A stretch of 39,274 bases of DNA. It comes from Candidatus Abawacabacteria bacterium RBG_16_42_10 (GTDB lineage: Bacteria > Patescibacteriota > Gracilibacteria > RBG-16-42-10). The stretch spans positions 1,548 to 40,821 of the forward strand of contig MEWR01000014.1 of the NCBI GenBank assembly GCA_001773455.1, given 5' to 3'. The notes below the pieces were generated by a model. It saw only the letters and a program-made list of their open reading frames with translations, ran no database searches and was not told where the DNA came from. The position numbers were made by a program, and so were the translations under genes. This document shows positions 11,254 through 37,127 of the stretch, piece after piece; position 1 is the first letter of the stretch, and the number at the start of each line of letters is the position of its first letter.

Positions 11254-11328
11254 TGGTGACCCCAAGAGGAATTGAACCTCTATCTAAACCTTCGGAGGGC
11301 TTCGTTCTATCCGTTAAACTATGGGGTC
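11254..11328 (-). tRNA. tRNA-Arg (anticodon CCG)
   Basis: Reverse complement GACCCCATAGTTTAACGGATAGAACGAAGCCCTCCGAAGGTTTAGATAGAGGTTCAATTCCTCTTGGGGTCACCA: acceptor GACCCCA/TGGGGTC, anticodon loop CTCCGAA, T arm AGAGG-TTCAATT-CCTCT, encoded CCA. Confidence 0.93.
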
Positions 11329-11791: not shown

Positions 11792-11866
11792 TGGTGACCC
11801 TGAGAGGAATTGAACCTCTATTTAGGCCTTAGGAGTGCCTCGTTCTATCCGTTGAACTACAGGATC
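11792..11866 (-). tRNA. tRNA-Arg (anticodon CCU)
   Basis: Reverse complement GATCCTGTAGTTCAACGGATAGAACGAGGCACTCCTAAGGCCTAAATAGAGGTTCAATTCCTCTCAGGGTCACCA; acceptor GATCCTG/CAGGGTC, loop CTCCTAA, T arm AGAGG-TTCAATT-CCTCT, encoded CCA. Confidence 0.9.
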
Positions 11867-24788: not shown

Positions 24789-25364
24789 TTATCTTCCAAA
24801 TCCGAGGAATTGCAGAATAATATACACAAAGCTCCATGCCAGCATCAGAATGGCAAATCCCAGCACCACATTGAAAAGATTTTTCTTAGCTTTTCCTATG
24901 GCATCAGCACGACCTTGTGCCAGTAAAAACTGAATAGCGGAAAAAACAATTGCCACGATAGCAATAATCGCGACAAAATTGAGCACATTATTCACAACAG
25001 TAGTAATCAATGCTTCCACTCCACCGGAACCAGGTAAACCATGAGCAGGTGGGGCTACGATTTGTAGTGGAGAACCGGAAGATCCGGCTCCCCCTGATGT
25101 GGGACTACCCAACTCAGCCGAGCCAGGTGCAGACCCCGCTGTCGGTGCTGGCACTCCTGTTCCAATATCCGCAGATCCGGGTTCCGATCCTGTTGGAGCT
25201 GCCGGCACTCCGGTTCCAATACCCGCAGATCCGGGTTCCGAACCCTCAGGTGGTGGTGGCATGGTCACTTCCGTGCCAGCAAAAACAATTTGCAGTGAAC
25301 ATAACAGGCTTATTGCAATGAGCAAAACACGACCGAATAAAAAATACAGACTTTTAACCACCAT
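24789..25364 (-). CDS. T4SS_pilin-like two-TM protein with S/G/P-rich repeat linker
   Basis: Signal peptide, GSEPGSAGIGTGVPA repeats, C-terminal module FVAIIAIVAIVFSAIQFLLAQGRADAIGKAKKNLFNVVLGFAILMLAWSFVYII. Confidence 0.78.
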   Translation of the reverse strand: MVVKSLYFLFGRVLLIAISLLCSLQIVFAGTEVTMPPPPEGSEPGSAGIGTGVPAAPTGSEPGSADIGTGVPAPTAGSAPGSAELGSPTSGGAGSSGSPLQIVAPPAHGLPGSGGVEALITTVVNNVLNFVAIIAIVAIVFSAIQFLLAQGRADAIGKAKKNLFNVVLGFAILMLAWSFVYIILQFLGFGR

Positions 25365-26463
25365 AGAAAATTCTCGTTACAAAGATAATAATCAAATATG
25401 CAAATGATGCGATCACAAGACCGACCACCGTAAGTGTAATCACCTGCTTCGCCTTGCCGACCTGTGCATCGTCACCACGGGCAGTCATATAGAGTATACC
25501 TCCATACATGATCGACAGCACTGCGATGATTGCGAGAAACCCGGAAATATAATTGATCGCATTATTGATAATCCTATCGATACTGATACGGCCAAATGTA
25601 GAAAAAGGAGTAACATTTACAAAACCCGGCCCGGTATAGATGGTACCAGGTGCGATACCGGAGGTGGGAGCACCACCACCGCTTACATCAGTAGAAAGCG
25701 GTTCAGATCCACTCGTAGCACCAGGAGAAGGAGAGACTACAGCTCCAGGTCTATGCGCTATAGAAGTTGCCATCTCATCTTGGCAAGGATGGCCAGACGA
25801 GGCCCTCACTGCGTCCCTCAACTGCGGACCAGTTGACGAATCAGTAATACCTGATAATTGCCAATTTGCACTTCCGCCAGCACCGTTCTGCATAAGACAA
25901 TCACTGAAAGCATTGAGCTTGGTTCGCGCTGCTTGATCTCTACCACTTGGGCTGCCTTGATTACTATCATAAGGACCAATTGGTGGGCTGTTTCCAGGAA
26001 GACCATTGCGCCAGATAAGTATAATATTTGCTCTATCCCTCACAACAACAGGCGCATATCTGCCATTAGAATCACGATTTCCTGCCTGCTCGGCATTGTA
26101 CACGGCAACATGTTGACTGTGACATGGATGATTTGCGTCTTCATTCATGGCCGCAATAAGTTGTGCAGTTGTTGCAGTCTCCAACGTACCACCAAATTGC
26201 CAGTTCTTACTACCTTCCGGACCTGTGTATAAACATGTCACCACAGCATCCAACGCATTGATAATATTCGTACGATACGTTTGTGTCGGTTGATTAGGTT
26301 GTCCGGCAACAGGATCACGATATGTGGACTCATAAAGTGTGTAGTATTGGTGAATATAATCCTGTACCACTCCAGCAAAAGCCACGGGAATCACTGCAAG
26401 AAATATACTGGCAGTGAAGAGAGAAAGAATAATTTTTTTCCAGTACTTTTGGAATTTCATCAT
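25354..26463 (-). CDS. Large ectodomain plus C-terminal T4SS_pilin-like module, paralog A
   Basis: Signal peptide; NWQ...HPC internal repeats; ISGFLAIIAVLSIMYGGILYMTARGDDAQVGKAKQVITLTVVGLVIASFAYLIIIF. Confidence 0.8.
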   Translation of the reverse strand: MMKFQKYWKKIILSLFTASIFLAVIPVAFAGVVQDYIHQYYTLYESTYRDPVAGQPNQPTQTYRTNIINALDAVVTCLYTGPEGSKNWQFGGTLETATTAQLIAAMNEDANHPCHSQHVAVYNAEQAGNRDSNGRYAPVVVRDRANIILIWRNGLPGNSPPIGPYDSNQGSPSGRDQAARTKLNAFSDCLMQNGAGGSANWQLSGITDSSTGPQLRDAVRASSGHPCQDEMATSIAHRPGAVVSPSPGATSGSEPLSTDVSGGGAPTSGIAPGTIYTGPGFVNVTPFSTFGRISIDRIINNAINYISGFLAIIAVLSIMYGGILYMTARGDDAQVGKAKQVITLTVVGLVIASFAYLIIIFVTRIFYGG

Positions 26464-27623
26464 GGTGTCGTTTCTAGTAAAAGAGTATTGAGGACCGTCA
26501 CAATAGTCAAAGCTGACAATGCCAATATCATGGCGATGATGGAATACAGAATAATATCCCGAGCCTGTTTGACCTTGGCCGGATCTCCGGCGGCCATGAT
26601 GTATTGATACCCACCCCAGACGATAAATATCACCATCACTCCTACGATGAGGGGAAGTATGCGACGAACAAGTAAATCAAAAAGAAAATTCATCAGCCCC
26701 GATATACTCGGTGTACTGCCCGAAGCAAAACCGGGTGTCAGCACATCCTCAGATCTCGGCTCGACAATTCTTTGATAAAGAGGTCGATCATCGATAGTGG
26801 GACTTGCCCCAGCTCCGGTACTCGTGAGAGGAGTACCAGTACCAGCTTCTGTAGCACCCGGGGTGGAGCCCTCCGGAGGCGGAGTGTCACCGGTGGAAGG
26901 AGCAGCTACAGCTTCAGGTCTATGCGCCACAGAAGTTTCCAACTCATCTTGGCAAGGATGGCCTGACGAGTTCCTCACTGCGTCCCTCAACTGTGGACCA
27001 GTGGACGAATCAGTAATACCTGACAATCGCCAATTTGCCTGACCGTTTGTTCCATTCTGCATGAGACAATCATCAAATGCATTAAGTTTTGTACGTGCAG
27101 CTTGATCTCTACCACTTGGGCTGCCTTGATTACTATCATAACGAGCGATTGGTGGGTCGTTTTCAGGAAGACCATTGCGCCAGATAAGTATCATATCTGC
27201 TCTATCCCTCACAACAACAGGAGCATATTTTCCATTGGGATCATTGTTACCTGCCTGTTCTGCGTTATATACAGCTACATGTTCATCGTGACAAGGATGA
27301 CTAGCATCACTGTTCATTGCATTAATAAGTTGCGACGTTGTTGCCGTTTCTTGTGTACCACCAAATTGCCAGTTCTTACTACCTTCCGGACCTGAATATA
27401 AACATGTCACCACAGCATCCAACGCATTGATAATATTCGTACGATACGGTTGTGCCGGTTGATTCGGCTGACCTGCAACAGGGTCACGATACCTTGATTC
27501 AAATGCTCTGTAATACTGATGAATATAATCCTGTACCACTCCGGCAAAGGCGACAGGAATGACTGCGAAAAACATACCGACAACGAACAATGAAAGAACG
27601 AATTTTGTAAATAAATTTTTCAT
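26460..27623 (-). CDS. Large ectodomain plus C-terminal T4SS_pilin-like module, paralog B
   Basis: Ectodomain nearly identical to paralog A; LIVGVMVIFIVWGGYQYIMAAGDPAKVKQARDIILYSIIAMILALSALTIV. Confidence 0.8.
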   Translation of the reverse strand: MKNLFTKFVLSLFVVGMFFAVIPVAFAGVVQDYIHQYYRAFESRYRDPVAGQPNQPAQPYRTNIINALDAVVTCLYSGPEGSKNWQFGGTQETATTSQLINAMNSDASHPCHDEHVAVYNAEQAGNNDPNGKYAPVVVRDRADMILIWRNGLPENDPPIARYDSNQGSPSGRDQAARTKLNAFDDCLMQNGTNGQANWRLSGITDSSTGPQLRDAVRNSSGHPCQDELETSVAHRPEAVAAPSTGDTPPPEGSTPGATEAGTGTPLTSTGAGASPTIDDRPLYQRIVEPRSEDVLTPGFASGSTPSISGLMNFLFDLLVRRILPLIVGVMVIFIVWGGYQYIMAAGDPAKVKQARDIILYSIIAMILALSALTIVTVLNTLLLETTP

Positions 27624-27626
27624 AAC

Positions 27627-28298
27627 CTAAAATGGTACTCGTAAAGTAGTGCCACCGGGACCGGTTTGTAGTGGGCCGACACCAACGCCGGGATTGAGCG
27701 CGGCACCGATATTGAGAAGTGTAGCTACCAAAGCATAAATACCGAAAACAATAATCATACTCATGACAGTTCCCCAAAGTACTTTTTTTGCCTTGTCCAA
27801 TTTGGCTTGATCACCGCTCGCAGTGATGTAGAGGAAACCACCCCAAATGATAAACACTATTGCTACAGCACCAAGGAAGCTCAACATAAAATTACTAAGT
27901 GCAGCAAATCCTTCTCTGGCGGTAGTAATCCGACTAAAAAACTGTCCCTGATACTGGCTACTATATTGTGTAGGACTGAGACCGGCTTGACCACCACTCT
28001 CATCAATAAATCCGCCCGACTCTCCCCCACTAGTCTCAAGTGTATTGTCTCCTGAACCAAAGTCTCTGTCTTCAGTAATCTCATCCTCTGGACTAGTCGG
28101 AGCATCTCCGGGAACACCACCAGGTACACCTCCGGGAATTCCCGATGGTGGAGCTGGGACTGTAGTCCCCGTTTGGGCAAAGACGGGAGAAGGGAAAATT
28201 AAAAATGTAAAATGTAAAATGTAAAATTGAAATGCAAAAATAAAAAGAAAAGAGACGAGTGAAGTTTTGAATTGAGAATTGAGAATTTTGAATTCCAT
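27627..28298 (-). CDS. T4SS_pilin-like protein
   Basis: Signal peptide partly encoded by heptad repeat; FLGAVAIVFIIWGGFLYITASGDQAKLDKAKKVLWGTVMSMIIVFGIYALVATLL. Confidence 0.8.
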   Translation of the reverse strand: MEFKILNSQFKTSLVSFLFIFAFQFYILHFTFLIFPSPVFAQTGTTVPAPPSGIPGGVPGGVPGDAPTSPEDEITEDRDFGSGDNTLETSGGESGGFIDESGGQAGLSPTQYSSQYQGQFFSRITTAREGFAALSNFMLSFLGAVAIVFIIWGGFLYITASGDQAKLDKAKKVLWGTVMSMIIVFGIYALVATLLNIGAALNPGVGVGPLQTGPGGTTLRVPF

Positions 28299-28307
28299 GG
28301 TGGATTT

Positions 28308-28667
28308 TTAAAATGAAACCCCTACACCAATATTGAGTCCGGGGCCGGAAGATTGTGGAGCCACTCCTGTGCCGGGAGTACCGAAGACACTTATGATAGT
28401 GGCTACTACAGCAAAAGAAACGATGACAAGGAGAAATCCGATCACGGCACCTACCAGGATAGTACGTCCGCTTTTAAATTGCTCAGCATTGCCTGCGGCA
28501 GAGAGCATCTTTACTCCACCCCAGATCATCACCACTACTGCTAGAAGCCCCAGGAAACTCAAAATAATATTGATATAAAAAACCGCAATCGCTTCAACTG
28601 TCTGAGATGTGAGTAAGCCCGATCCTTGAGGATAGTCTGGCAATAATGCTGAAATTAAATAAGGCAT
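28308..28667 (-). CDS. Minimal T4SS_pilin-like protein
   Basis: IILSFLGLLAVVVMIWGGVKMLSAAGNAEQFKSGRTILVGAVIGFLLVIVSFAVVATIISVFG. Confidence 0.8.
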   Translation of the reverse strand: MPYLISALLPDYPQGSGLLTSQTVEAIAVFYINIILSFLGLLAVVVMIWGGVKMLSAAGNAEQFKSGRTILVGAVIGFLLVIVSFAVVATIISVFGTPGTGVAPQSSGPGLNIGVGVSF

Positions 28668-28675
28668 ATATATTT

Positions 28676-29323
28676 CTAAAATAAACTACCGACTAAACTG
28701 CCAATTCCCGTTCCAATACCAAAATTTACACCGCCACCGCTGGTTGAGAGACATATGCCCGCCTGTGGAGTGGCGCATTCATTGACCCCACGTCGGGTAG
28801 CAGAAATGATCGTTGAAACGATAGCAAAGGCAATAACAACAACAAAGAAACCAACCAATGCGGATGTTAATACACTTTTAGCTTTTTTGAGTTTCCCGGC
28901 ATCACCAAATGCGGTTGTGTATTGGTACCCTCCATAGATCAGCATGATCAATACAATGAGCCCCAAGAAATCAAGGAAAAAATTAATGAGACTGACGATA
29001 TACGCTTCAATGGTGGGATATGCAGGAATAGTAAAAGCTCCGGGTTGTGCTGGTCTGACATCAAAACCACCGGGTCCCAATTGTGCATAAGGATTTGTCT
29101 CATTGGGATTTCTTCTCGGTGCTATGTCACTACTTTCTGAGCCGGTAGCAGTATCCGTTCCCCCGGTTCCCGTTTCCGTCACCAAAGAGGGAATATCTGA
29201 AGCGACACCGGAAATATCCGGCAACGAAAGTTGTGCATGAACATTTCCGGTAAAACTAAGAAAGCTTAAAAAAACACTTGCTCCCAGTAGTAACCGTACA
29301 AAAATGTTTGTGAAGGATTTCAT
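28676..29323 (-). CDS. T4SS_pilin-like protein
   Basis: Signal peptide; FLDFLGLIVLIMLIYGGYQYTTAFGDAGKLKKAKSVLTSALVGFFVVVIAFAIVSTII. Confidence 0.82.
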   Translation of the reverse strand: MKSFTNIFVRLLLGASVFLSFLSFTGNVHAQLSLPDISGVASDIPSLVTETGTGGTDTATGSESSDIAPRRNPNETNPYAQLGPGGFDVRPAQPGAFTIPAYPTIEAYIVSLINFFLDFLGLIVLIMLIYGGYQYTTAFGDAGKLKKAKSVLTSALVGFFVVVIAFAIVSTIISATRRGVNECATPQAGICLSTSGGGVNFGIGTGIGSLVGSLF

Positions 29324-29338
29324 GGGGATATGTATTCT

Positions 29339-31459
29339 TTATTCGGCAACGATTCTAATAGTCGCTTCATCAACTTGGCCTGCAACATCATTTACTCGAA
29401 GCACAACATTATAAATGCCGGGTTGACTAAATGTATGTTCGACAGTTCTACCGACACCGCTGGTGGTATCATCGAAAGTCCATTGATAATCAGTAATACT
29501 TCCTGTTGAACCCGATGCGTTGAAGAATATCGTCAGTGGCGCTGTACCTCGGGTACGACTCGCTTCTATCTGCGCAATTGGCGCGGGTACTCGAACAGCT
29601 ATTGCCATGGTTTGTTCGGCAGTTTGATTGGCAGTATCACGGACTGTGAGCTCTAGTGTATAAACGCCGGGCGAATTGTACGTATGTGAGACACGAGCAT
29701 TGCCGATAATTTTTGTTGCATCACCAAAATCCCATTCATAAGAAATGATATTTCCATTCGCAGAAAACGAGCCTGAAGCGTCGAAAGAAATCGTGAATGG
29801 CACATTTCCAGAGGGGGTGGCGGGATCAGTAGTGATCTGAATAATCGGTTTTTGGAGAGTTGGCGCTTTCACTTTGACAATCATCGATGTCGGTAAACTG
29901 TTTTGATTCTCATTGTCGGTGACGATGAGACTGACCGTAAATTGGCCGGCGCGTGTAAACGTATGTTCTACTCTTTGTCCTGAAATTTTTTCCGTACCAT
30001 CACCAAAGTCCCAGTCATAAGCAACTATGGTCCCATCAATATCAGTGGAACTTTCACCATTGAATGCTACGGTAAAAGGAAAGTCTCCCTCCAGCGCTCC
30101 TTTTTCCGGTGGAGGAGGATTTGAGCTAATCACCGCTTTCGGTAATTGCCTGGGATTGCCAACTTGTACATAAATATAATCTTCAGAGACATTATCATCA
30201 TTATCCTTCAAACGCACAGTGACTTTGTACGTGCCATTTTCCTTGAAGCTATGATTCACAATTTTTCCCGACTCTGGCTTATCACCATCTCCATAATCCC
30301 AATCATAACTCACGACTTGACCATCATCCGTTGAATCAGCAGCACTAAATCTCACTGCCAAGGGTTTAATACCGGTCACAACTTTTCTGTCTTCTTCCTC
30401 TACGAATGGAGGTGTAGTTGAAAGTTTAATTACTGGAGCATTGAGTGGTGGTAGGACATTGATTGCGACAGCATATACTGTAGTATCAAAATTATTGTCC
30501 GTGAGTGTAAGTGTAGCGGTATACGTACCTTCAGCAGCATACGTATGAGATGTTTTAAGATCTGTCGTATCGGCTCCCGTACCGCTGATCGGATCACCGA
30601 AATTCCACCCCTGACTGATGATCTGACCATTGGGATCGAGCGATTCACTCGCATCAAAATTCACGGCAAGAGGTGCAGGACCCGAAGTAGGATCAACCTC
30701 AACATTGGCGGTAGGACGAGTATTATTGATAACGACCAAAGCCTCTCTCTTATTTTCATTACTCCGAGCATCTGTCATCGTCAGTACAACGGTAAAGCGA
30801 CCCTCTGACTGAAATACATGAGTCAAAGATGGACCGGTTCCTGATTGTCCATCGCCAAAATCCCAAGCAAAAAAGTTACCGGGAGTCTGTACACCCGTCG
30901 CTGTAAATTTGACTTCAAAGGGTGCAGCCCCTGTTAAGTTGGCAGGTTCTGAAGTGATACGAAGACCGGTTTCTACCACGCGTTGTGGTAATTGAACATT
31001 TCCCAAAAGCAAAGTAAAAATAATCCACAAAACTGACACAATGATAAGAGATATCGTTGATCGAAAGAGTAGACGCCGCGCTCTTCTGACTTGATTCGGC
31101 TCGCTTAAAGCGGCCAAATACATAAAGCCACCAATTACCAAAGAAATGATAGAAATAACAAATATGACTCCAAAGACTACATTGACGACCTGCGACAAGA
31201 CAGTTCTTACATCAGCACCCACACCAAATGCGGATAATAAATTACCTCCACCTCCCAAAGCCGCAATAAACAAAGCGGTCAGAAAAATGAAAATAAAAAC
31301 AACACCTACCCAGACCAGAATTCGCCTGGCTCCTTGTTCACCACGAGGACGCATAGATTGCCTTCGGCCTCCTGTGTCTTTTACAGCAAATCGCTCAGTC
31401 ACTCGTTCTTGATTTGTAGGAGCCTTACGCTCAGGCGGAAAATCCGTTTCATTTGCCAT
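29339..31459 (-). CDS. T4SS_pilin-like TM module fused to about six PKD domains
   Basis: VVFGVIFVISIISLVIGGFMYLAALSEPNQVRRARRLLFRSTISLIIVSVLWII followed by WDFGDGQSG, WNFGDPISG, WDYGDGDKP, WDFGDGTEK, WDFGDATKI, WTFDDTTSG. Confidence 0.88.
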   Translation of the reverse strand: MANETDFPPERKAPTNQERVTERFAVKDTGGRRQSMRPRGEQGARRILVWVGVVFIFIFLTALFIAALGGGGNLLSAFGVGADVRTVLSQVVNVVFGVIFVISIISLVIGGFMYLAALSEPNQVRRARRLLFRSTISLIIVSVLWIIFTLLLGNVQLPQRVVETGLRITSEPANLTGAAPFEVKFTATGVQTPGNFFAWDFGDGQSGTGPSLTHVFQSEGRFTVVLTMTDARSNENKREALVVINNTRPTANVEVDPTSGPAPLAVNFDASESLDPNGQIISQGWNFGDPISGTGADTTDLKTSHTYAAEGTYTATLTLTDNNFDTTVYAVAINVLPPLNAPVIKLSTTPPFVEEEDRKVVTGIKPLAVRFSAADSTDDGQVVSYDWDYGDGDKPESGKIVNHSFKENGTYKVTVRLKDNDDNVSEDYIYVQVGNPRQLPKAVISSNPPPPEKGALEGDFPFTVAFNGESSTDIDGTIVAYDWDFGDGTEKISGQRVEHTFTRAGQFTVSLIVTDNENQNSLPTSMIVKVKAPTLQKPIIQITTDPATPSGNVPFTISFDASGSFSANGNIISYEWDFGDATKIIGNARVSHTYNSPGVYTLELTVRDTANQTAEQTMAIAVRVPAPIAQIEASRTRGTAPLTIFFNASGSTGSITDYQWTFDDTTSGVGRTVEHTFSQPGIYNVVLRVNDVAGQVDEATIRIVAE

Positions 31460-31465
31460 AAAAGG

Positions 31466-31544
31466 AAATTAAAAATGTAAAATGTAAAATGTAGAATTGC
31501 ATTCCCTAAATAATTTTAAATTTTTCATTTTAAACTTTAAATTG
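31466..31544. repeat. AT-rich heptad repeats between the two PKD genes
   Basis: AAATGTA AAATGTA AAATGTA GAATTGC ... AATTTTA AATTTTT CATTTTA AACTTTA AATTGCT. Confidence 0.7.
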
Positions 31545-34500
31545 CTAAGGGCTAACCGTTATCGTTTGTGGCTCACTGTCCACTTGCACATCCTGACTAC
31601 CTTTTACTTTCAGTTCTACTTTATATGTTCCAGGTTGTTTGTAAATATGTGCTACTTTGGGCTGTTTACTGACAACAGTTTGATCATCGCCAAAATCAAA
31701 ACGGTACTCGGAGATTTGACCGTCGGGATCATTGGAACTACTGGCATCAAATTGCACTGTTAGTGGAGCTTTTCCGAATGTTGGGCTCATGACAAATCGT
31801 GCAGTGGGAGGAAGATCTTCGACTACTGCCTGTACCTGAACTCTATTCAATTTCGCAGCTCTCGTATCGGTAACCGTGAGAGTAACGGTAAATGTCCCCT
31901 GTCTTTTGTATTGATGAGTGGTTGTTGCACCGGATGCCAGTGGTGATCCATCACCAAAATCCCAAGAAAAATCCAGATCGGTAGTACTACCTTCGGTATT
32001 GATCGACTTGGAACCATCGAAATTAAAGAGTGTTGCAAGTGAACCGGTAAGTGGATAACTCGGAGTAAAAAACACTGAAGCAATAGGTCCACTACCATCA
32101 CCGACATGGATAGGATAGGCAGATATCGCCTCTTCTCCCTCACGATCGGCAACTTTGAGTGTCGCCAAATATCGCCCGGGTTCAGTATAGGTATGAGATT
32201 GCACTTCCACACCTTGGCTGATCGAAGTACTTCGCACAATTTCAGAACCATCACCAAAATCCCATTCAAAAGAGGTAATAGTATTCGTATCAACACGCGT
32301 AGTGAGACTACGGAAACCACCGCCTACCAAGTTCACTTGTAAAGGAGCCACACCAATCGCTTGTGAACCTTCCTGAATCTGCATAGTAGAGACAAGAAGG
32401 GATGTCACCGGTACCATTCGAGATACATCGGATGTCAGTCCTGCAGCATCAGTGACACGCAGTGTAACAAGATTATTTCCGACTTTATCCAATGTTCTTG
32501 TGACCTCAGGATCGCGACTACTTGAGAGATCAAAGATATTGTCCCCATCAAAATCCCAGCTGAATGACAAAACATCATTGGTATCAGGATCAGAAGAAGC
32601 AGTCGCATCAAAAGTTATTTTATTGGGGACATATGGATCATATGAAAAATCAAAAGCGGCCAAAGGCGGACTGGACTCCACAAAGAAGCGATGGCTGACA
32701 CGGCCACTTACCGTACCCAAACTCGTCGTCACCTGAAGAGACACTTCATAGCGACCGGGCTTCGGAAAGCTATAGGTAAATATTTTTTCATTAGACACTT
32801 TTACCACCTCATTTGCAGCAGATGTCACCCGCCAATCATATTTCGACACTGACCCTTGTGGAGACGAGGATGCTGTTGCATCAAACCTTACCTTACTGGC
32901 TGTTGTAAGCATTTCATCCGCCTGGAAATCAAAGTCTGCAGTCGGTGTATTGCTGTCATTCAAAATCATTGTTTTTGTCACTTGTCCAAAGTTTTGTGCC
33001 TCATCGGTAATTCTGAGTGTTACCGTATATGTACCGGGATTTTCATATGTATGAGTGACCTTCTCTTTGGCGCTCAATTGATTCTGATCTTGTATGACCG
33101 ACACCGTTCCGTCACCAAAATCCCATTCTGCTTGTACGAGTTGTGTGCGGGCATTGAAACCGGGCACCAATGCACCCACACTGTCCTCCGCAGTAAAGTC
33201 AAAAGCAGTTGGAGCGAAAATATTTTGCGTAAAGAACGTTTTGTCTGGATTAGACCATGTTGTCTGTGTAGCAGAACGAATTTGCAATTTCACATCCGGC
33301 GGGGCTGATAACACTTTAATTTTTTTCTTGGCTACCCCTGCCAATTGACCATTTTCTGCTCGTAAAACCAGTTCATAATCCCCAGGCACGCCATATGCAT
33401 GGGTCACAACTTCATTGTCCTGCCCGGTATCTTGTTTACCATCACCAAAATCCCATGTAAGTTTTAGTTTCCCTTGTGCTGAAGGATCATATGAAGCAGC
33501 GCCGGAAAGAGTGATAGGTTGATTTGCCGTCAGTAAAATCTCTTCAGGCACAGGTCCCAATACCGAATCTTGATCTGTCACAATGACAGAGACTGGATAT
33601 ACTGGAACAATTTTTACTTCTGCAGTCGCGGCAGAGAATCCCGATGGCCCTTGCACCATGAGTTTTACCAGATAGGTACCGGCTCTCGTATATGTATGCG
33701 AGACAAAAGGACCCACAGCAAACAAACCATCACCAAAATCCCAAAAATAACCGCTGGGATTGGGTATGGTACCAACAGCATCTTGAGATCCGGATGCATC
33801 AAAATTTATCACTTGGAATGTCGAATTGGTAGCTTTGGAAGCTTGATTGCTCCTCAAATTGGCTTTGACCTGTACAGCTCTTTCTCTATTGATGAAAAGT
33901 GACTGCAAAGAAGTATATAGGAAAACAGCAGCCTCCATTTGTTTCTGATATTCAGTGACATCTATATTGCCATTGTTAACTGCAGCCAATCCTCCGATCG
34001 CCATCACATTGTCCCCCACTCTTTGCAAACTCTCACCGATCAGCGACATGCTCGGAAAAAAGTACGGACCGGTTCCCTTCACTTCACTGAGTGCAGTAGA
34101 GGCATACACCATAGATTCAGCCAAAATATGCAACCCAAAACCACTCAATATAATCGCACTCTCAATAGGAATCACCTGTTGTCTTGCATTCATATCATCA
34201 CTGAGCTTTTTGAGAGCCGCCCCATACGTGGCGATCAAACGAGAAACATCAGTTTTTTCAGGCTCAACTTGCAAAATATAATCAGCAACTTGTTGTAAAT
34301 AGTTCGATATATACAAAAACCATTGTGATTGGATATCCATATTGCTCCGCACGTATGTGAGTTGCTGACGGAGAGAGAGATCAGTGTTCGGCACTGCTGT
34401 CGGCTGCACAGTGCCTGTGGGAGAAGGAACTGCAGTTATTTGACCCCCGGGAGTAATAAGAGTCGGTACTTCAACATCTGTAGTTGCGGCCATTACCGAA

Positions 34501-34553
34501 AACGGCATCAACACCAATGTACAAAGCAAGAATGACACAAGTGATTTTCTCAT
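31545..34553 (-). CDS. Secreted multi-PKD-domain protein (about eight PKD-like repeats)
   Basis: Signal peptide; WDFGDGLFAVG, WDFGDGKQDTG, WDFGDGTVSV, degenerate YDWRVTSAANE, SWDFDGDNIFD, WDFGDGSEIV, WDFGDGSPLA, FDFGDDQTVV. Confidence 0.88.
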   Translation of the reverse strand: MRKSLVSFLLCTLVLMPFSVMAATTDVEVPTLITPGGQITAVPSPTGTVQPTAVPNTDLSLRQQLTYVRSNMDIQSQWFLYISNYLQQVADYILQVEPEKTDVSRLIATYGAALKKLSDDMNARQQVIPIESAIILSGFGLHILAESMVYASTALSEVKGTGPYFFPSMSLIGESLQRVGDNVMAIGGLAAVNNGNIDVTEYQKQMEAAVFLYTSLQSLFINRERAVQVKANLRSNQASKATNSTFQVINFDASGSQDAVGTIPNPSGYFWDFGDGLFAVGPFVSHTYTRAGTYLVKLMVQGPSGFSAATAEVKIVPVYPVSVIVTDQDSVLGPVPEEILLTANQPITLSGAASYDPSAQGKLKLTWDFGDGKQDTGQDNEVVTHAYGVPGDYELVLRAENGQLAGVAKKKIKVLSAPPDVKLQIRSATQTTWSNPDKTFFTQNIFAPTAFDFTAEDSVGALVPGFNARTQLVQAEWDFGDGTVSVIQDQNQLSAKEKVTHTYENPGTYTVTLRITDEAQNFGQVTKTMILNDSNTPTADFDFQADEMLTTASKVRFDATASSSPQGSVSKYDWRVTSAANEVVKVSNEKIFTYSFPKPGRYEVSLQVTTSLGTVSGRVSHRFFVESSPPLAAFDFSYDPYVPNKITFDATASSDPDTNDVLSFSWDFDGDNIFDLSSSRDPEVTRTLDKVGNNLVTLRVTDAAGLTSDVSRMVPVTSLLVSTMQIQEGSQAIGVAPLQVNLVGGGFRSLTTRVDTNTITSFEWDFGDGSEIVRSTSISQGVEVQSHTYTEPGRYLATLKVADREGEEAISAYPIHVGDGSGPIASVFFTPSYPLTGSLATLFNFDGSKSINTEGSTTDLDFSWDFGDGSPLASGATTTHQYKRQGTFTVTLTVTDTRAAKLNRVQVQAVVEDLPPTARFVMSPTFGKAPLTVQFDASSSNDPDGQISEYRFDFGDDQTVVSKQPKVAHIYKQPGTYKVELKVKGSQDVQVDSEPQTITVSP

Positions 34554-34571
34554 GTACGTCTAAAATATTTG

Positions 34572-35264
34572 TTAGAAACGAACTCCCACTGAAAAACCCA
34601 AACTCACTCCACCCGTTGTGGAAGGGAAACCCGGGAAACCTCTCTCTATACCGAGCCCACTAAAATTTGTTCCGGTCTGTGGGCCGATACCCGCAATCAA
34701 TGTATTTACTGCTGCATATGATAGAGCAATGATCACCACACCAACCACAGCATATGTGATAGTCTGTTTACCTTTTTTTGCGGCTTCAGGATCACCTGCA
34801 GATGCCAAGTAACGAAAACCTCCGTACACCAACATAAGAAAAGCTAGTATTCCTACAAATCCCAAGAAAAAATTTACTATTTGCACGATCAAAGGTTCGA
34901 GCTGAGGATTGTTCGCTTGCAAGACCGTCCCCTGCGGAACATGAATACCATATGTAAAACCAGGTGTCAGACCCAAACCTGCACCGGGTCGTAAATTTCC
35001 GGTCGCACCGGCAATTCCTCCGGCAATTCCACCGGCGACAGCACCTATTGCTGCACCGATAGCAGACCCCTCTCTACCGCCGATAGCACCACCAATTGCG
35101 CTTCCCAGACCTGCACCGGCACCCGCTCCCACCATAGCCCCACCAATACCACCAACGACACTGTCTACGGCATCAGCACGGACAGTTGTCGCCATAAACG
35201 GCGAGAGCAAGACGCTAACTGAAGTCAACAATGAAAGTAGAGTGAATAGGATCTTTCGCAACAT
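34572..35264 (-). CDS. T4SS_pilin-like protein with glycine-zipper segment
   Basis: Start corrected to MLRKILFTLLS (35264). IGGAMVGAGAGAGLGSAIGGAIGGREGSAIGAAIGAVAGGIAGGIAG, then FLGFVGILAFLMLVYGGFRYLASAGDPEAAKKGKQTITYAVVGVVIIALSYAAVNTLI. Confidence 0.8.
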   Translation of the reverse strand: MLRKILFTLLSLLTSVSVLLSPFMATTVRADAVDSVVGGIGGAMVGAGAGAGLGSAIGGAIGGREGSAIGAAIGAVAGGIAGGIAGATGNLRPGAGLGLTPGFTYGIHVPQGTVLQANNPQLEPLIVQIVNFFLGFVGILAFLMLVYGGFRYLASAGDPEAAKKGKQTITYAVVGVVIIALSYAAVNTLIAGIGPQTGTNFSGLGIERGFPGFPSTTGGVSLGFSVGVRF

Positions 35265-35290
35265 AACGTAAAAATTATTATGTATTAAAA

Positions 35291-35938
35291 TTAAAAACTG
35301 ATACCTAAACCAGCACCAATATTTATTCCTCCACCTGCAGCAGGCGCGGTTGCTGCTGGAGCAGCTCCTCCTGGCGCAGTCGGCGCAGGAGCTGTCCCCT
35401 GACCACCAGTCAATGTAACTGAAACAATCGTATATGCAAAAATAGCTATGAGTATTCCCGTGATCGAACTCCATATTGCTTTTGTAGCCTTACTCACTTG
35501 ACCGGGATCGCCTCTGGCGGTCATATACATGTATCCACCGTATACCAAATAGATCACAGCCACACTGCCAATCAATGCAAGTAAGAAATTGGTAATACTA
35601 ATTATAATCGTATTGGCTCCACCAATATCGATACCGACAGCTGGATCAAAAATTGAACCGATACTCTGAGCGAGTGCGATGATGATGAGTCCAATCACAG
35701 AATACGTCACAGAGTCTTTTGCCTTTTTAATCGCTCCTTCATCACCACGAGCGGTAATATAAAAATATCCCGCGACTACGATATACATAGTAGCCACCGA
35801 GGCAGCAACACCTTGCAGAATTCTGATAATGACGAGGAAAAAATCGCCGGATGTCGTCAATTGCGGCACACCTGAAACATCCGATGGCAGTGGAATAGCG
35901 TGTACATAAGGAATGAAGAATTCAAGTAAAGTTTTCAT
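35291..35938 (-). CDS. Tandem (double) T4SS_pilin-like protein
   Basis: Two modules: YIVVAGYFYITARGDEGAIKKAKDSVTYSVIGLIIIALAQSI and YLVYGGYMYMTARGDPGQVSKATKAIWSSITGILIAIFAYTIV. Confidence 0.85.
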   Translation of the reverse strand: MKTLLEFFIPYVHAIPLPSDVSGVPQLTTSGDFFLVIIRILQGVAASVATMYIVVAGYFYITARGDEGAIKKAKDSVTYSVIGLIIIALAQSIGSIFDPAVGIDIGGANTIIISITNFLLALIGSVAVIYLVYGGYMYMTARGDPGQVSKATKAIWSSITGILIAIFAYTIVSVTLTGGQGTAPAPTAPGGAAPAATAPAAGGGINIGAGLGISF

Positions 35939-35947
35939 GATGAGGAG

Positions 35948-36274
35948 TTAACGAGCCAATCGAGTCAGGTCTGTAGTCAGTACACGAACCACCAGGAAAG
36001 ATAAAGTCACGACGATAATACCAAAAATTGCGCCGATGATCTTGGTTTTACCTTTTTGTTTTGTTTCGACATCCCAACCCCAAATATACTGACTTGCTCC
36101 CCAAAATACAAAGAAAATAGCCACTCCCCCTGAAATCCCAAGCAAGAAATCAATCGCATAATTAATCAAAACAGCGACATCCGACAATTTGGGATCATCG
36201 AGAATATAATCCCCCTGACTCGGGGTAAGCGTCGTAGCTACCGCGTAAATAAAGTTTTGTATCGGTATCAACAT
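35948..36274 (-). CDS. Minimal T4SS_pilin-like protein (first pilin gene of the array)
   Basis: LLGISGGVAIFFVFWGASQYIWGWDVETKQKGKTKIIGAIFGIIVVTLSFLVVRVL. Confidence 0.75.
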   Translation of the reverse strand: MLIPIQNFIYAVATTLTPSQGDYILDDPKLSDVAVLINYAIDFLLGISGGVAIFFVFWGASQYIWGWDVETKQKGKTKIIGAIFGIIVVTLSFLVVRVLTTDLTRLAR

Positions 36275-36290
36275 AATTTTTGCGTTCTAT

Positions 36291-37127
36291 TCATTGTAAC
36301 AAAAATCGCACGATCGTACCATCGTTATCGGTACGTTTGACGGCTCCCCATATTTGCAAATGGCAGATAGTATCATGGTTTGGATGACCGTACTTATTGT
36401 CCCTGCCTACACTAACAAAAGTTTCTTGAGGTTGCACGCTTTGCAAGAAAGGCCATGTGGAACTGGTTTTACTGCCATGATGCCCAGCTTTGAGACAATC
36501 AGCTTCGAGATCTTTTGCATAATATTTTACCAAAAGAGACTCCAGCTCTTTCTCTGCGTCCCCACTCAATAGGCATGTAAAATCGTTCACATGCAGCATA
36601 GCCACCAAAGACGAATTGTTCACATTCTTAAAATTTTTGTCTTCCAGTGAATCAAAAGGAAATAACACATCTACCAAAACATTTTCTGCTAATTCAAAAT
36701 CTTCATCATAACGAGCAATAAACATTGGAATATTCTTTGCCCGCAATTCCTTTTTTAGCAATTGATAATTTGAACTGTCGTACAACACACCGGTAAACAC
36801 GACACCACCCACAGAATAACTTTGTAACAGTGCCAGTAAGCCATCAAGATGATCGGCATGCGGGTGGGTGAGAAAGATCAAATCAATGCGTTTTTGAAAC
36901 ACTGGCAGTTGTTGTGGCAATTCCTTCAAAATATTCCGATCAGGTCCGGCATCGAAGAGAATCGTCCTTCCTTCCTTGGTGATGAGCAAAATCGCATCTC
37001 CTTGGCCCACATCCAGAAAAGCAAGCTTGGCATGTGAGGACCTCAAATCCACAGCAAAACAAAAAGAAACGATACATACATGCAAGAAAACAGCAACAAT
37101 CACTTTCATGGTAAGAAATAACTTCAC
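36291..37127 (-). CDS. Secreted stand-alone ComEC/Rec2-type metallo-beta-lactamase-fold protein
   Basis: Signal peptide; LAFLDVGQGDAILLITKEGRTILFDAGPD, LIFLTHPHADHLDGL, CLLSGDAEKELE, LKAGHHGSKTSS. Confidence 0.9.
   Translation of the reverse strand: MKLFLTMKVIVAVFLHVCIVSFCFAVDLRSSHAKLAFLDVGQGDAILLITKEGRTILFDAGPDRNILKELPQQLPVFQKRIDLIFLTHPHADHLDGLLALLQSYSVGGVVFTGVLYDSSNYQLLKKELRAKNIPMFIARYDEDFELAENVLVDVLFPFDSLEDKNFKNVNNSSLVAMLHVNDFTCLLSGDAEKELESLLVKYYAKDLEADCLKAGHHGSKTSSTWPFLQSVQPQETFVSVGRDNKYGHPNHDTICHLQIWGAVKRTDNDGTIVRFLLQ

What the first reader, a model, noticed from the sequence alone, without database searches (positions are those of the whole stretch)
24789..37127. Multi-paralog pilin-like/PKD operon: candidate undescribed CPR cell-surface apparatus
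Twelve consecutive minus-strand genes are packed with gaps of about 3-30 bp (or 4-11 bp overlaps), except ~85 bp between the PKD genes. Ten encode the same two-helix module, roughly hhGGhxYhxAxGDxxxhxKAKxxhhxxhhGhhhh, giving 11 modules in total. It resembles the T4SS_pilin/VirB2-TrbC-like family common in Patescibacteria. The modules occur in several architectures: minimal, double, glycine-zipper, large ectodomain, S/G/P linker, and PKD fusion. No VirB4/VirD4-type ATPase is in the window. Many diversified pilin-like subunits plus adhesin-like PKD proteins suggests a heteropolymeric surface structure for host attachment, DNA uptake or secretion. The function is inference.
Basis: partly seen in the sequence, partly recalled or inferred. 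Interest (0 to 1): 0.87.

Follow-up and report, generated by a model that had tools for sequence, protein, structure and literature searches.

The report
Pilin-like and PKD surface-protein gene cluster
An ultrasmall parasitic-type bacterium carries a 12-gene cluster of pilus-like membrane proteins and stalk-like surface proteins that elaborates a gene set conserved across its class, probably the host-contact end of a secretion or conjugation machine whose motors are encoded elsewhere in the genome.

Summary
Twelve co-directional genes (37127 down to 24789) encode eleven VirB2-type two-helix hairpins in ten proteins. All ten match Pfam T4SS_pilin; seven pass the curated cut-off. Two carry PKD arrays and one is a ComEC-type nuclease domain. 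The order is conserved in the only same-family genome available, a Candidatus Gracilibacteria bacterium, under purifying selection. The operon is a family-level elaboration of a class-wide cluster: two triple-hairpin proteins, a giant PKD protein with one hairpin, and a g06-type hairpin-PKD protein. A g06-type protein is near full length in about 60 of 117 class genomes and was not found in other classes. Sixteen of 20 further g06 loci have hairpin genes within 8 kb on the same strand. Here g02+g03 align to one triple-hairpin protein split by a stop codon. The genome also encodes PrgI, TrsD, VirB4 and VirD4-like genes, on other contigs. Most likely this is the surface and membrane part of a dispersed type IV secretion-type machine for host contact. 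Coupling to VirB4 is unproven: linkage occurs in two families, within chance (P about 0.12). Pilin arrays were already known in Patescibacteria; in the papers searched I found no mention of the PKD-fused, multi-hairpin cluster.

The parts
36291..37127 (-). g01: 278 aa, signal-anchored ComEC-type metallo-beta-lactamase (the nuclease part of a split ComEC)
   Evidence: PF00753 2e-15; TIGR00361 ComEC 4e-32, below cut-off because the channel part is absent; the ComEC channel is a separate 439-aa gene on C19; single copy in 5/5 genomes tested, next to the hairpin operon only in G000 and G001
35948..36274 (-). g02: 108 aa, one VirB2-type hairpin; matches hairpin 1 of the class triple-hairpin protein
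   Evidence: PF18895 30.6 bits
35291..35938 (-). g03: 215 aa, two hairpins; matches hairpins 2-3 of the triple-hairpin protein; C-tail INIGAGLGISF
   Evidence: PF18895 64 bits, TrbC 36.2 bits; NF045849 above cut-off
34572..35264 (-). g04: 230 aa, signal peptide, glycine-zipper region, hairpin, C-tail SLGFSVGVRF
   Evidence: PF18895 46.5 bits; start codon read
31545..34553 (-). g05: 1002 aa, signal peptide and 8 PKD stretches, no hairpin
   Evidence: PKD_4 2.5e-103, 8 stretches; 65% identical in G001
29339..31459 (-). g06: 706 aa, basic N-terminal tail, TM helix, hairpin, 6 PKD domains; the class-conserved marker
   Evidence: PKD_4 1.6e-96, PF18895 8e-5; class search; topology
28676..29323 (-). 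g07: 215 aa, signal peptide, linker, hairpin, C-tail FGIGTGIGSLVGSLF
   Evidence: PF18895 27.6 bits
28308..28667 (-). g08: 119 aa, minimal hairpin, C-tail LNIGVGVSF
   Evidence: PF18895 5.5e-5, below cut-off
27627..28298 (-). g09: 223 aa, signal peptide, acidic linker, hairpin
   Evidence: PF18895 1.2e-5, just below cut-off
26460..27623 (-). g10: 387 aa, signal peptide, about 250-aa ectodomain with two Cys-containing repeats (C..NWQ.GG..HPC), hairpin at the C-terminus
   Evidence: PF18895 43.5 bits; alignment
25354..26463 (-). g11: 369 aa, paralog of g10 (63% identical)
   Evidence: PF18895 28.9 bits; AF2 ectodomain all-helical, pLDDT about 80-90; hairpin resembles conjugation pilin 8dfu
24789..25364 (-). 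g12: 191 aa, signal peptide, S/G/P repeat linker, hairpin
   Evidence: PF18895 31.3 bits

Best explanation
The operon encodes the membrane and surface part of a domesticated, dispersed type IV secretion-type machine of the class Gracilibacteria, specialised for contact with another cell. SHOWN: VirB2-type hairpins, predicted outside-in-outside with a short basic cytoplasmic loop, are reused as single hairpins, as hairpins with ectodomains, and as PKD fusions; the core gene set is conserved across the class; VirB4, TrsD, PrgI and VirD4-like genes exist in the same genome at other loci. INFERRED: (a) multi-hairpin proteins (g02-g03) and g06 form a membrane platform; (b) small hairpin subunits assemble on it as a short pilus or channel; (c) the PKD proteins g05 and g06, and the g10/g11 ectodomains, are stalks or adhesins that hold or recognise the partner cell; (d) VirB4 and VirD4-like ATPases from other loci power assembly or substrate movement. 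The extra genes g07-g12 would diversify the exposed face.
For: Hairpin family membership. N-out/C-out pattern with a basic loop in all ten proteins. Whole-operon synteny in G001 and purifying selection. Class-wide core cluster: full-length g06 in about 60 of 117 class genomes; 16 of 20 loci with same-strand hairpin genes within 8 kb, typically triple-hairpin A, triple-hairpin B, giant PKD with hairpin, g06. g02+g03 align colinearly to the triple-hairpin model. T4SS core in the same genome. Cluster near VirB4 in G015, near PrgI-TrsD in G018, and a VirD4-like gene about 8 kb away in G020. Model of the g11 hairpin: the only Foldseek hit of note is the Aeropyrum pernix conjugation pilus 8dfu, prob 0.80, TM 0.65 to target, but E 5.2. 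Precedent: giant Ig-like stalks fused to a VirB4/TraG ATPase in episymbiotic nanohaloarchaea (PMC10266531); an essential T4SS pilin array in S. epibionticum (PMC10633639).
Against: VirB4 is not near g06 in any class genome searched (209-270 kb apart where both share a contig). The two linkages that were found would arise by chance with P about 0.12. G016, rated 100% complete, keeps the full cluster but shows no VirB4 even at E<=10. Lineages that read TGA as sense have VirB4 but no full-length g06. Small pilins sit near VirB4 in other class genomes and near a VirD4-like gene in this one, so this cluster may not supply the T4SS pilus. No expression or localisation data exist.
Confidence: 0.48

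Rival explanations
1. An adhesive surface complex independent of any T4SS: VirB2-type hairpins serve only as membrane anchors and oligomerisation modules for PKD stalks and other ectodomains, and no ATPase is involved.
For: VirB4 unlinked to g06 class-wide; core cluster kept in G016 without detectable VirB4; most genes carry an ectodomain or linker; g06 and triple-hairpin proteins are unlikely to be extracted into a pilus.
Against: g03 scores as TrbC/VirB2 and as a conjugal pilin-like protein above curated cut-offs; the T4SS core is scattered in this class, so lack of linkage is weak evidence.
Confidence: 0.3
2. An ordinary VirB2 pilin array of the kind already described in Patescibacteria: tandem pilin paralogs diversified for different hosts, with PKD genes as incidental neighbours.
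For: 441 arrays of 2-11 VirB2-like genes, about 25% identical, in 383 assemblies (PMC12102498); the window modules average 26% identity.
Against: PKD genes are core members across the class, not incidental; hairpins are fused to PKD arrays and concatenated into triple-hairpin proteins.
Confidence: 0.12
3. A DNA-uptake apparatus: the split ComEC nuclease (g01) with hairpin proteins captures host or environmental DNA.
For: ComEC is split in this genome and its nuclease part heads the operon in both genera of the family; archaeal Ced, built from VirB2/VirB6/VirB4-like parts, imports DNA (PMC9905601).
Against: g01 is elsewhere in G016 and G006, and about 8 kb off in G020; ComEC was not essential for epibiotic growth in S. 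epibionticum (as cited in PMC12102498).
Confidence: 0.1

Closest known systems
Patescibacteria T4SS with VirB2-like pilin arrays (PMC12102498; essential array in S. epibionticum, PMC10633639)
   Same: T4SS_pilin hairpins in tandem arrays of diverged paralogs; VirB4, TrsD and PrgI present in the genome
   Different: Array lies far from virB4; includes PKD fusions, ectodomains, a double-hairpin protein and a ComEC nuclease; in distant relatives triple- and quadruple-hairpin proteins. The word PKD does not occur in the 2025 survey's main text
Archaeal Ced/Ted DNA-import systems (CedA1 pilin, CedA VirB6-like pore; PMC9905601, PMC11868833)
   Same: Two-helix VirB2-type subunits together with polytopic proteins that contain a pilin-like region
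   Different: No detectable sequence match of the triple-hairpin proteins to any CedA or VirB6 model; PKD proteins are not described there
Giant Ig-like-VirB4 proteins (SPEARE-type) of nanohaloarchaea (PMC10266531)
   Same: Long Ig-like stalk physically joined to a T4SS component in an ultrasmall episymbiont
   Different: There the partner is the VirB4/TraG ATPase; here it is the VirB2-type hairpin
Mycoplasma ICE pilin-like conjugal transfer protein (NCBIfam NF045849, Mbov_0395 family)
   Same: g03 passes the curated cut-off; all ten triple-hairpin proteins scanned match
   Different: Family model is a single 80-aa hairpin, not double or triple or PKD-fused

Membership tests
Pfam PF18895 T4SS_pilin | Whole-protein score above the gathering cut-off (26.6 bits) | tested here: met
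   Met by g02, g03, g04, g07, g10, g11, g12; g06, g08, g09 just below at E 1e-5 to 8e-5
VirB2/TrbC conjugative pilin | TrbC/VirB2 profile (PF04956) above cut-off | tested here: met
   g03 only within the operon (36.2 vs 27.9); 5 of 10 triple-hairpin homologs match the profile, not all above cut-off
VirB2/TrbC conjugative pilin | Two TM helices, N-out/C-out, short basic cytoplasmic loop | tested here: met
   Hydropathy and charge pattern in all ten proteins; AF2 hairpin in g11
VirB2/TrbC conjugative pilin | Hairpin fold matches a solved conjugation pilin | tested here: inconclusive
   g11 hairpin to 8dfu, prob 0.80, TM 0.65, E 5.2; g03 model of low confidence gave no such hit
VirB2/TrbC conjugative pilin | Polymerises into a pilus | not testable with these tools
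   No structural or imaging data
T4SS of the Patescibacteria/MPF-FATA type | VirB4 encoded in the same genome | tested here: met
   C2: NF045971 357.9 vs cut-off 325
T4SS of the Patescibacteria/MPF-FATA type | Cluster encoded next to virB4 or another T4SS core gene | tested here: not met
   Different contig in G000; near VirB4 or PrgI-TrsD only in G015 and G018
VirB6/CedA pore (for triple-hairpin homologs) | Match to a VirB6/TrbL or CedA profile | tested here: not met
   No such family at E<=1 in NCBIfam, nor among the families shown for Pfam
Pam pilus system (NCBIfam NF058578 PamR) | Score above cut-off 300 bits and shared neighbours | tested here: not met
   73 and 58 bits, from PKD-type stretches; true PamR loci hold no hairpin modules
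ComEC (g01) | Channel and nuclease domains in one protein | tested here: not met
   g01 is the nuclease domain alone; the channel is a separate 439-aa ORF on C19

The most novel reading that the evidence does not exclude
The triple-hairpin proteins, built by concatenating VirB2-type hairpins and represented here by g02+g03, are the missing VirB6/CedA-type membrane pore of the Gracilibacteria T4SS, and giant PKD stalks fused to the same hairpin are its host-binding arms. VirB6 is reported as absent in this class (PMC12102498), and CedA is reported to contain a pilin-like N-terminal region (PMC9905601). That would catch the proposed pilin-pore evolutionary link in a living system.
Probability: 0.2. 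Interest if true: 0.8.

Novelty: new variant of a known kind. Interest (0 to 1): 0.6.

Why it matters
Almost all Patescibacteria are uncultivated and how they grip and feed on hosts is unknown. A class-wide gene set that joins secretion-system pilin hairpins to PKD stalks gives a concrete, syntenic and testable candidate for the contact apparatus. It may also explain why VirB6 looks absent in Gracilibacteria: the pore could be made of concatenated pilin hairpins.

Tried and rejected
1) Pam pilus (NF058578): score far below cut-off; real PamR loci carry no hairpin modules. 2) C-terminal alternating tail (GhGhGhxF) as a general sorting or strand-donor signal: strong in G000 and G001 but not in other families (1 of 87 hairpin proteins vs 3 of 519 others, P 0.46), so only a family-level trait. 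3) Linkage to T4SS core genes as proof of coupling: two of about 17 families, P about 0.12. 4) VirB6 or CedA membership of the triple-hairpin proteins: no profile hit. 5) Solved-structure sequence relatives: none convincing for A3, A4 or A5. 6) g10/g11 ectodomain fold: no PDB match. 7) The g03 AF2 model is of low confidence (pLDDT 57) and its fold search is uninformative. 8) Promoter-like sites equal chance and terminator-like sites are fewer than chance, so co-transcription is not shown by them. 9) genome-contig search with g03 found only the G001 contig as a true ortholog.
Full report
WHAT IS THERE. The window is G000:C14:1548-40821 of a 1.1-Mb, 28-contig genome rated 96% complete. The nearest held relative, G001, is the only same-family genome in the sample. 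It corresponds to Candidatus Gracilibacteria bacterium Go_SlAct_bin_456. Twelve minus-strand genes run from 37127 to 24789 with gaps of 3-26 bp, one gap of 85 bp between the PKD genes, and overlaps of 4 and 11 bp at the end. I name them g01-g12 in transcription order.

MODULE IDENTITY. All ten module proteins match Pfam T4SS_pilin (PF18895). Seven pass the gathering score; g06, g08 and g09 fall just short. g03 also passes the TrbC/VirB2 Pfam cut-off and the NCBIfam cut-off for the Mbov_0395 pilin-like conjugal transfer protein. Hydropathy and charge predict outside-in-outside topology with a short basic cytoplasmic loop in every case, including g06. In g06 a basic N-terminal tail and an extra helix precede the hairpin and the PKD array lies outside. 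An AlphaFold2 model of g11 has a C-terminal hairpin whose only Foldseek match of note is the Aeropyrum pernix conjugation pilus (8dfu; prob 0.80, TM 0.65 to target). The E-value is 5.2, so this is a hint and not a proof. The g03 model is too weak to use.

FAMILY-LEVEL CONSERVATION. In G001 the same genes follow in the same order after the same divergent MscS gene, with g10 and g11 swapped. The contig ends before any g12. Amino-acid identities are roughly 40-70%. dN is 0.25-0.63 while dS is at or near saturation, so the genes are maintained by purifying selection.

CLASS-LEVEL CORE. I used an alignment of six g06-like proteins to search 117 genomes of the class. 107 match at E<=1e-25, and about 60 match over nearly the full length (TM region plus six PKD domains; my count from the table). 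In a phylum sample of 191 genomes, genomes outside the class gave one PKD-only match, so g06 appears class-restricted. Twenty further g06 loci from some 16 families were read. Sixteen have hairpin-module genes on the same strand within 8 kb. The canonical arrangement, as in L082-L086 and L090, is triple-hairpin A, triple-hairpin B, giant PKD protein (about 1500-1700 aa there) with one hairpin, and g06. Triple-hairpin proteins match PF18895 three times each. In families f7 and f10 the multi-hairpin pair lies elsewhere in the genome and the PKD part keeps its own hairpin gene. A model of triple-hairpin B aligns in G000 across g02 and g03, reading through the stop codon between them. g02 occupies hairpin 1 and g03 hairpins 2-3, in order. 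The focal operon is therefore this core in altered form plus family-specific additions (g01, g07-g12). That g04+g05 stand for the giant PKD protein is my inference from domain order.

LINK TO A TYPE IV SECRETION SYSTEM. The genome has a T4SS core on contig C2: PrgI-like, TrsD, VirB4 (above the NF045971 cut-off) and an M23 peptidase protein. It has VirD4-like ATPases on C23, near two small pilins, and on C20. VirB4 is present in 112 of 117 class genomes, but on a different contig from g06 in nearly all. The distance is about 209 kb in the single-contig genomes G181 and G239 and about 270 kb in G026. The cluster lies close to VirB4 in G015 and to PrgI-TrsD in G018, and a VirD4-like gene is about 8 kb away in G020. 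A simulation puts two such coincidences at P about 0.12, so this is suggestive only. G016, rated 100% complete, retains the full cluster without detectable VirB4. Because VirB4 is often solitary in this class, absence of linkage is weak evidence either way.

THE ComEC-LIKE GENE. g01 is the metallo-beta-lactamase domain of ComEC. The channel domain is a separate 439-aa gene on C19. A stand-alone copy exists once in each of five genomes tested, next to the hairpin operon only in the focal family. In family f8 it lies within about 9 kb of the hairpin cluster. It may reflect a functional tie to DNA handling, but this is not established.

MECHANISM. I commit to a membrane platform of VirB2-type hairpins with PKD stalks that contacts another cell and probably works with the dispersed T4SS ATPases (48%). 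The main rival is an ATPase-independent adhesive complex that uses the hairpin only as an anchor (30%). Two facts argue against a simple pilus of twelve interchangeable subunits: g06 has a cytoplasmic tail and an extra helix, and the homologs of g02-g03 are single polytopic proteins of about six helices. Archaeal Ced/Ted systems offer a parallel, because the VirB6-like pore CedA contains a region homologous to its pilin CedA1 (PMC9905601). VirB6 is reported absent in Gracilibacteria (PMC12102498). Triple-hairpin proteins as that pore is the most novel reading not excluded, although no VirB6 or CedA profile matches them.

COMPARISON AND NOVELTY. Arrays of 2-11 VirB2-like genes in Patescibacteria are published (PMC12102498) and one is essential in S. 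epibionticum (PMC10633639). Giant Ig-like proteins fused to VirB4-type ATPases are known in nanohaloarchaeal episymbionts (PMC10266531). PKD domains among giant surface proteins are noted in Vampirococcus (PMC8080830). In the papers searched I found no description of a class-wide cluster that fuses VirB2-type hairpins to PKD arrays and concatenates them; subscription papers and preprints were not held. I rate it a new variant of a known kind.

Noticed in passing
L095:6332-7651 (G000:C19) and window 36291-37127: ComEC is split into a channel-only gene and a stand-alone metallo-beta-lactamase nuclease gene; the stand-alone nuclease occurs once in each of five class genomes tested.
   Followed up: partly
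L043 (G000:C10:22000-38304) and L012:13035-14693: At least seven tandem paralogs of about 515-590 aa with zinc-ribbon-like starts (CRxCQxxF / CxxTGxxF) plus one elsewhere; an unexplained expanded family.
   Followed up: no
L037, L074-L077, L092: Giant PKD proteins or a neighbouring PKD protein end in a conserved C-terminal motif P(V/I/M)PDWLK(N/G) or similar; looks like a sorting or docking signal.
   Followed up: no
window 35291-35938, 34572-35264, 28308-28667; L011:9348-10082; L022; L023: Hairpin proteins of this family end in an alternating glycine/hydrophobic tail with a terminal Phe (GhGhGhxF); shared by two genera, not by other families.
   Followed up: partly
L012:8894-11356 (G000:C1) and L013:1-1353 (G000:C14, just upstream of the window): T4SS_pilin hairpins fused to other domains: an 821-aa protein with a phosphodiester glycosidase (NAGPA) match, and a 450-aa protein with a weak CHAP match.
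   Followed up: no
G000:C28:18066-22775: A 2173-aa open frame with PKD-type matches, probably another giant surface protein.
   Followed up: no
window 11254-11328 and 11792-11866: Two tRNA-Arg genes (anticodons ccg and cct) flank a 142-aa ORF.
   Followed up: no
L078:5602-8127: Downstream of g06 in this genome, a VWA-like protein with S-layer homology domains; possible surface anchoring partner in family f7.
   Followed up: no
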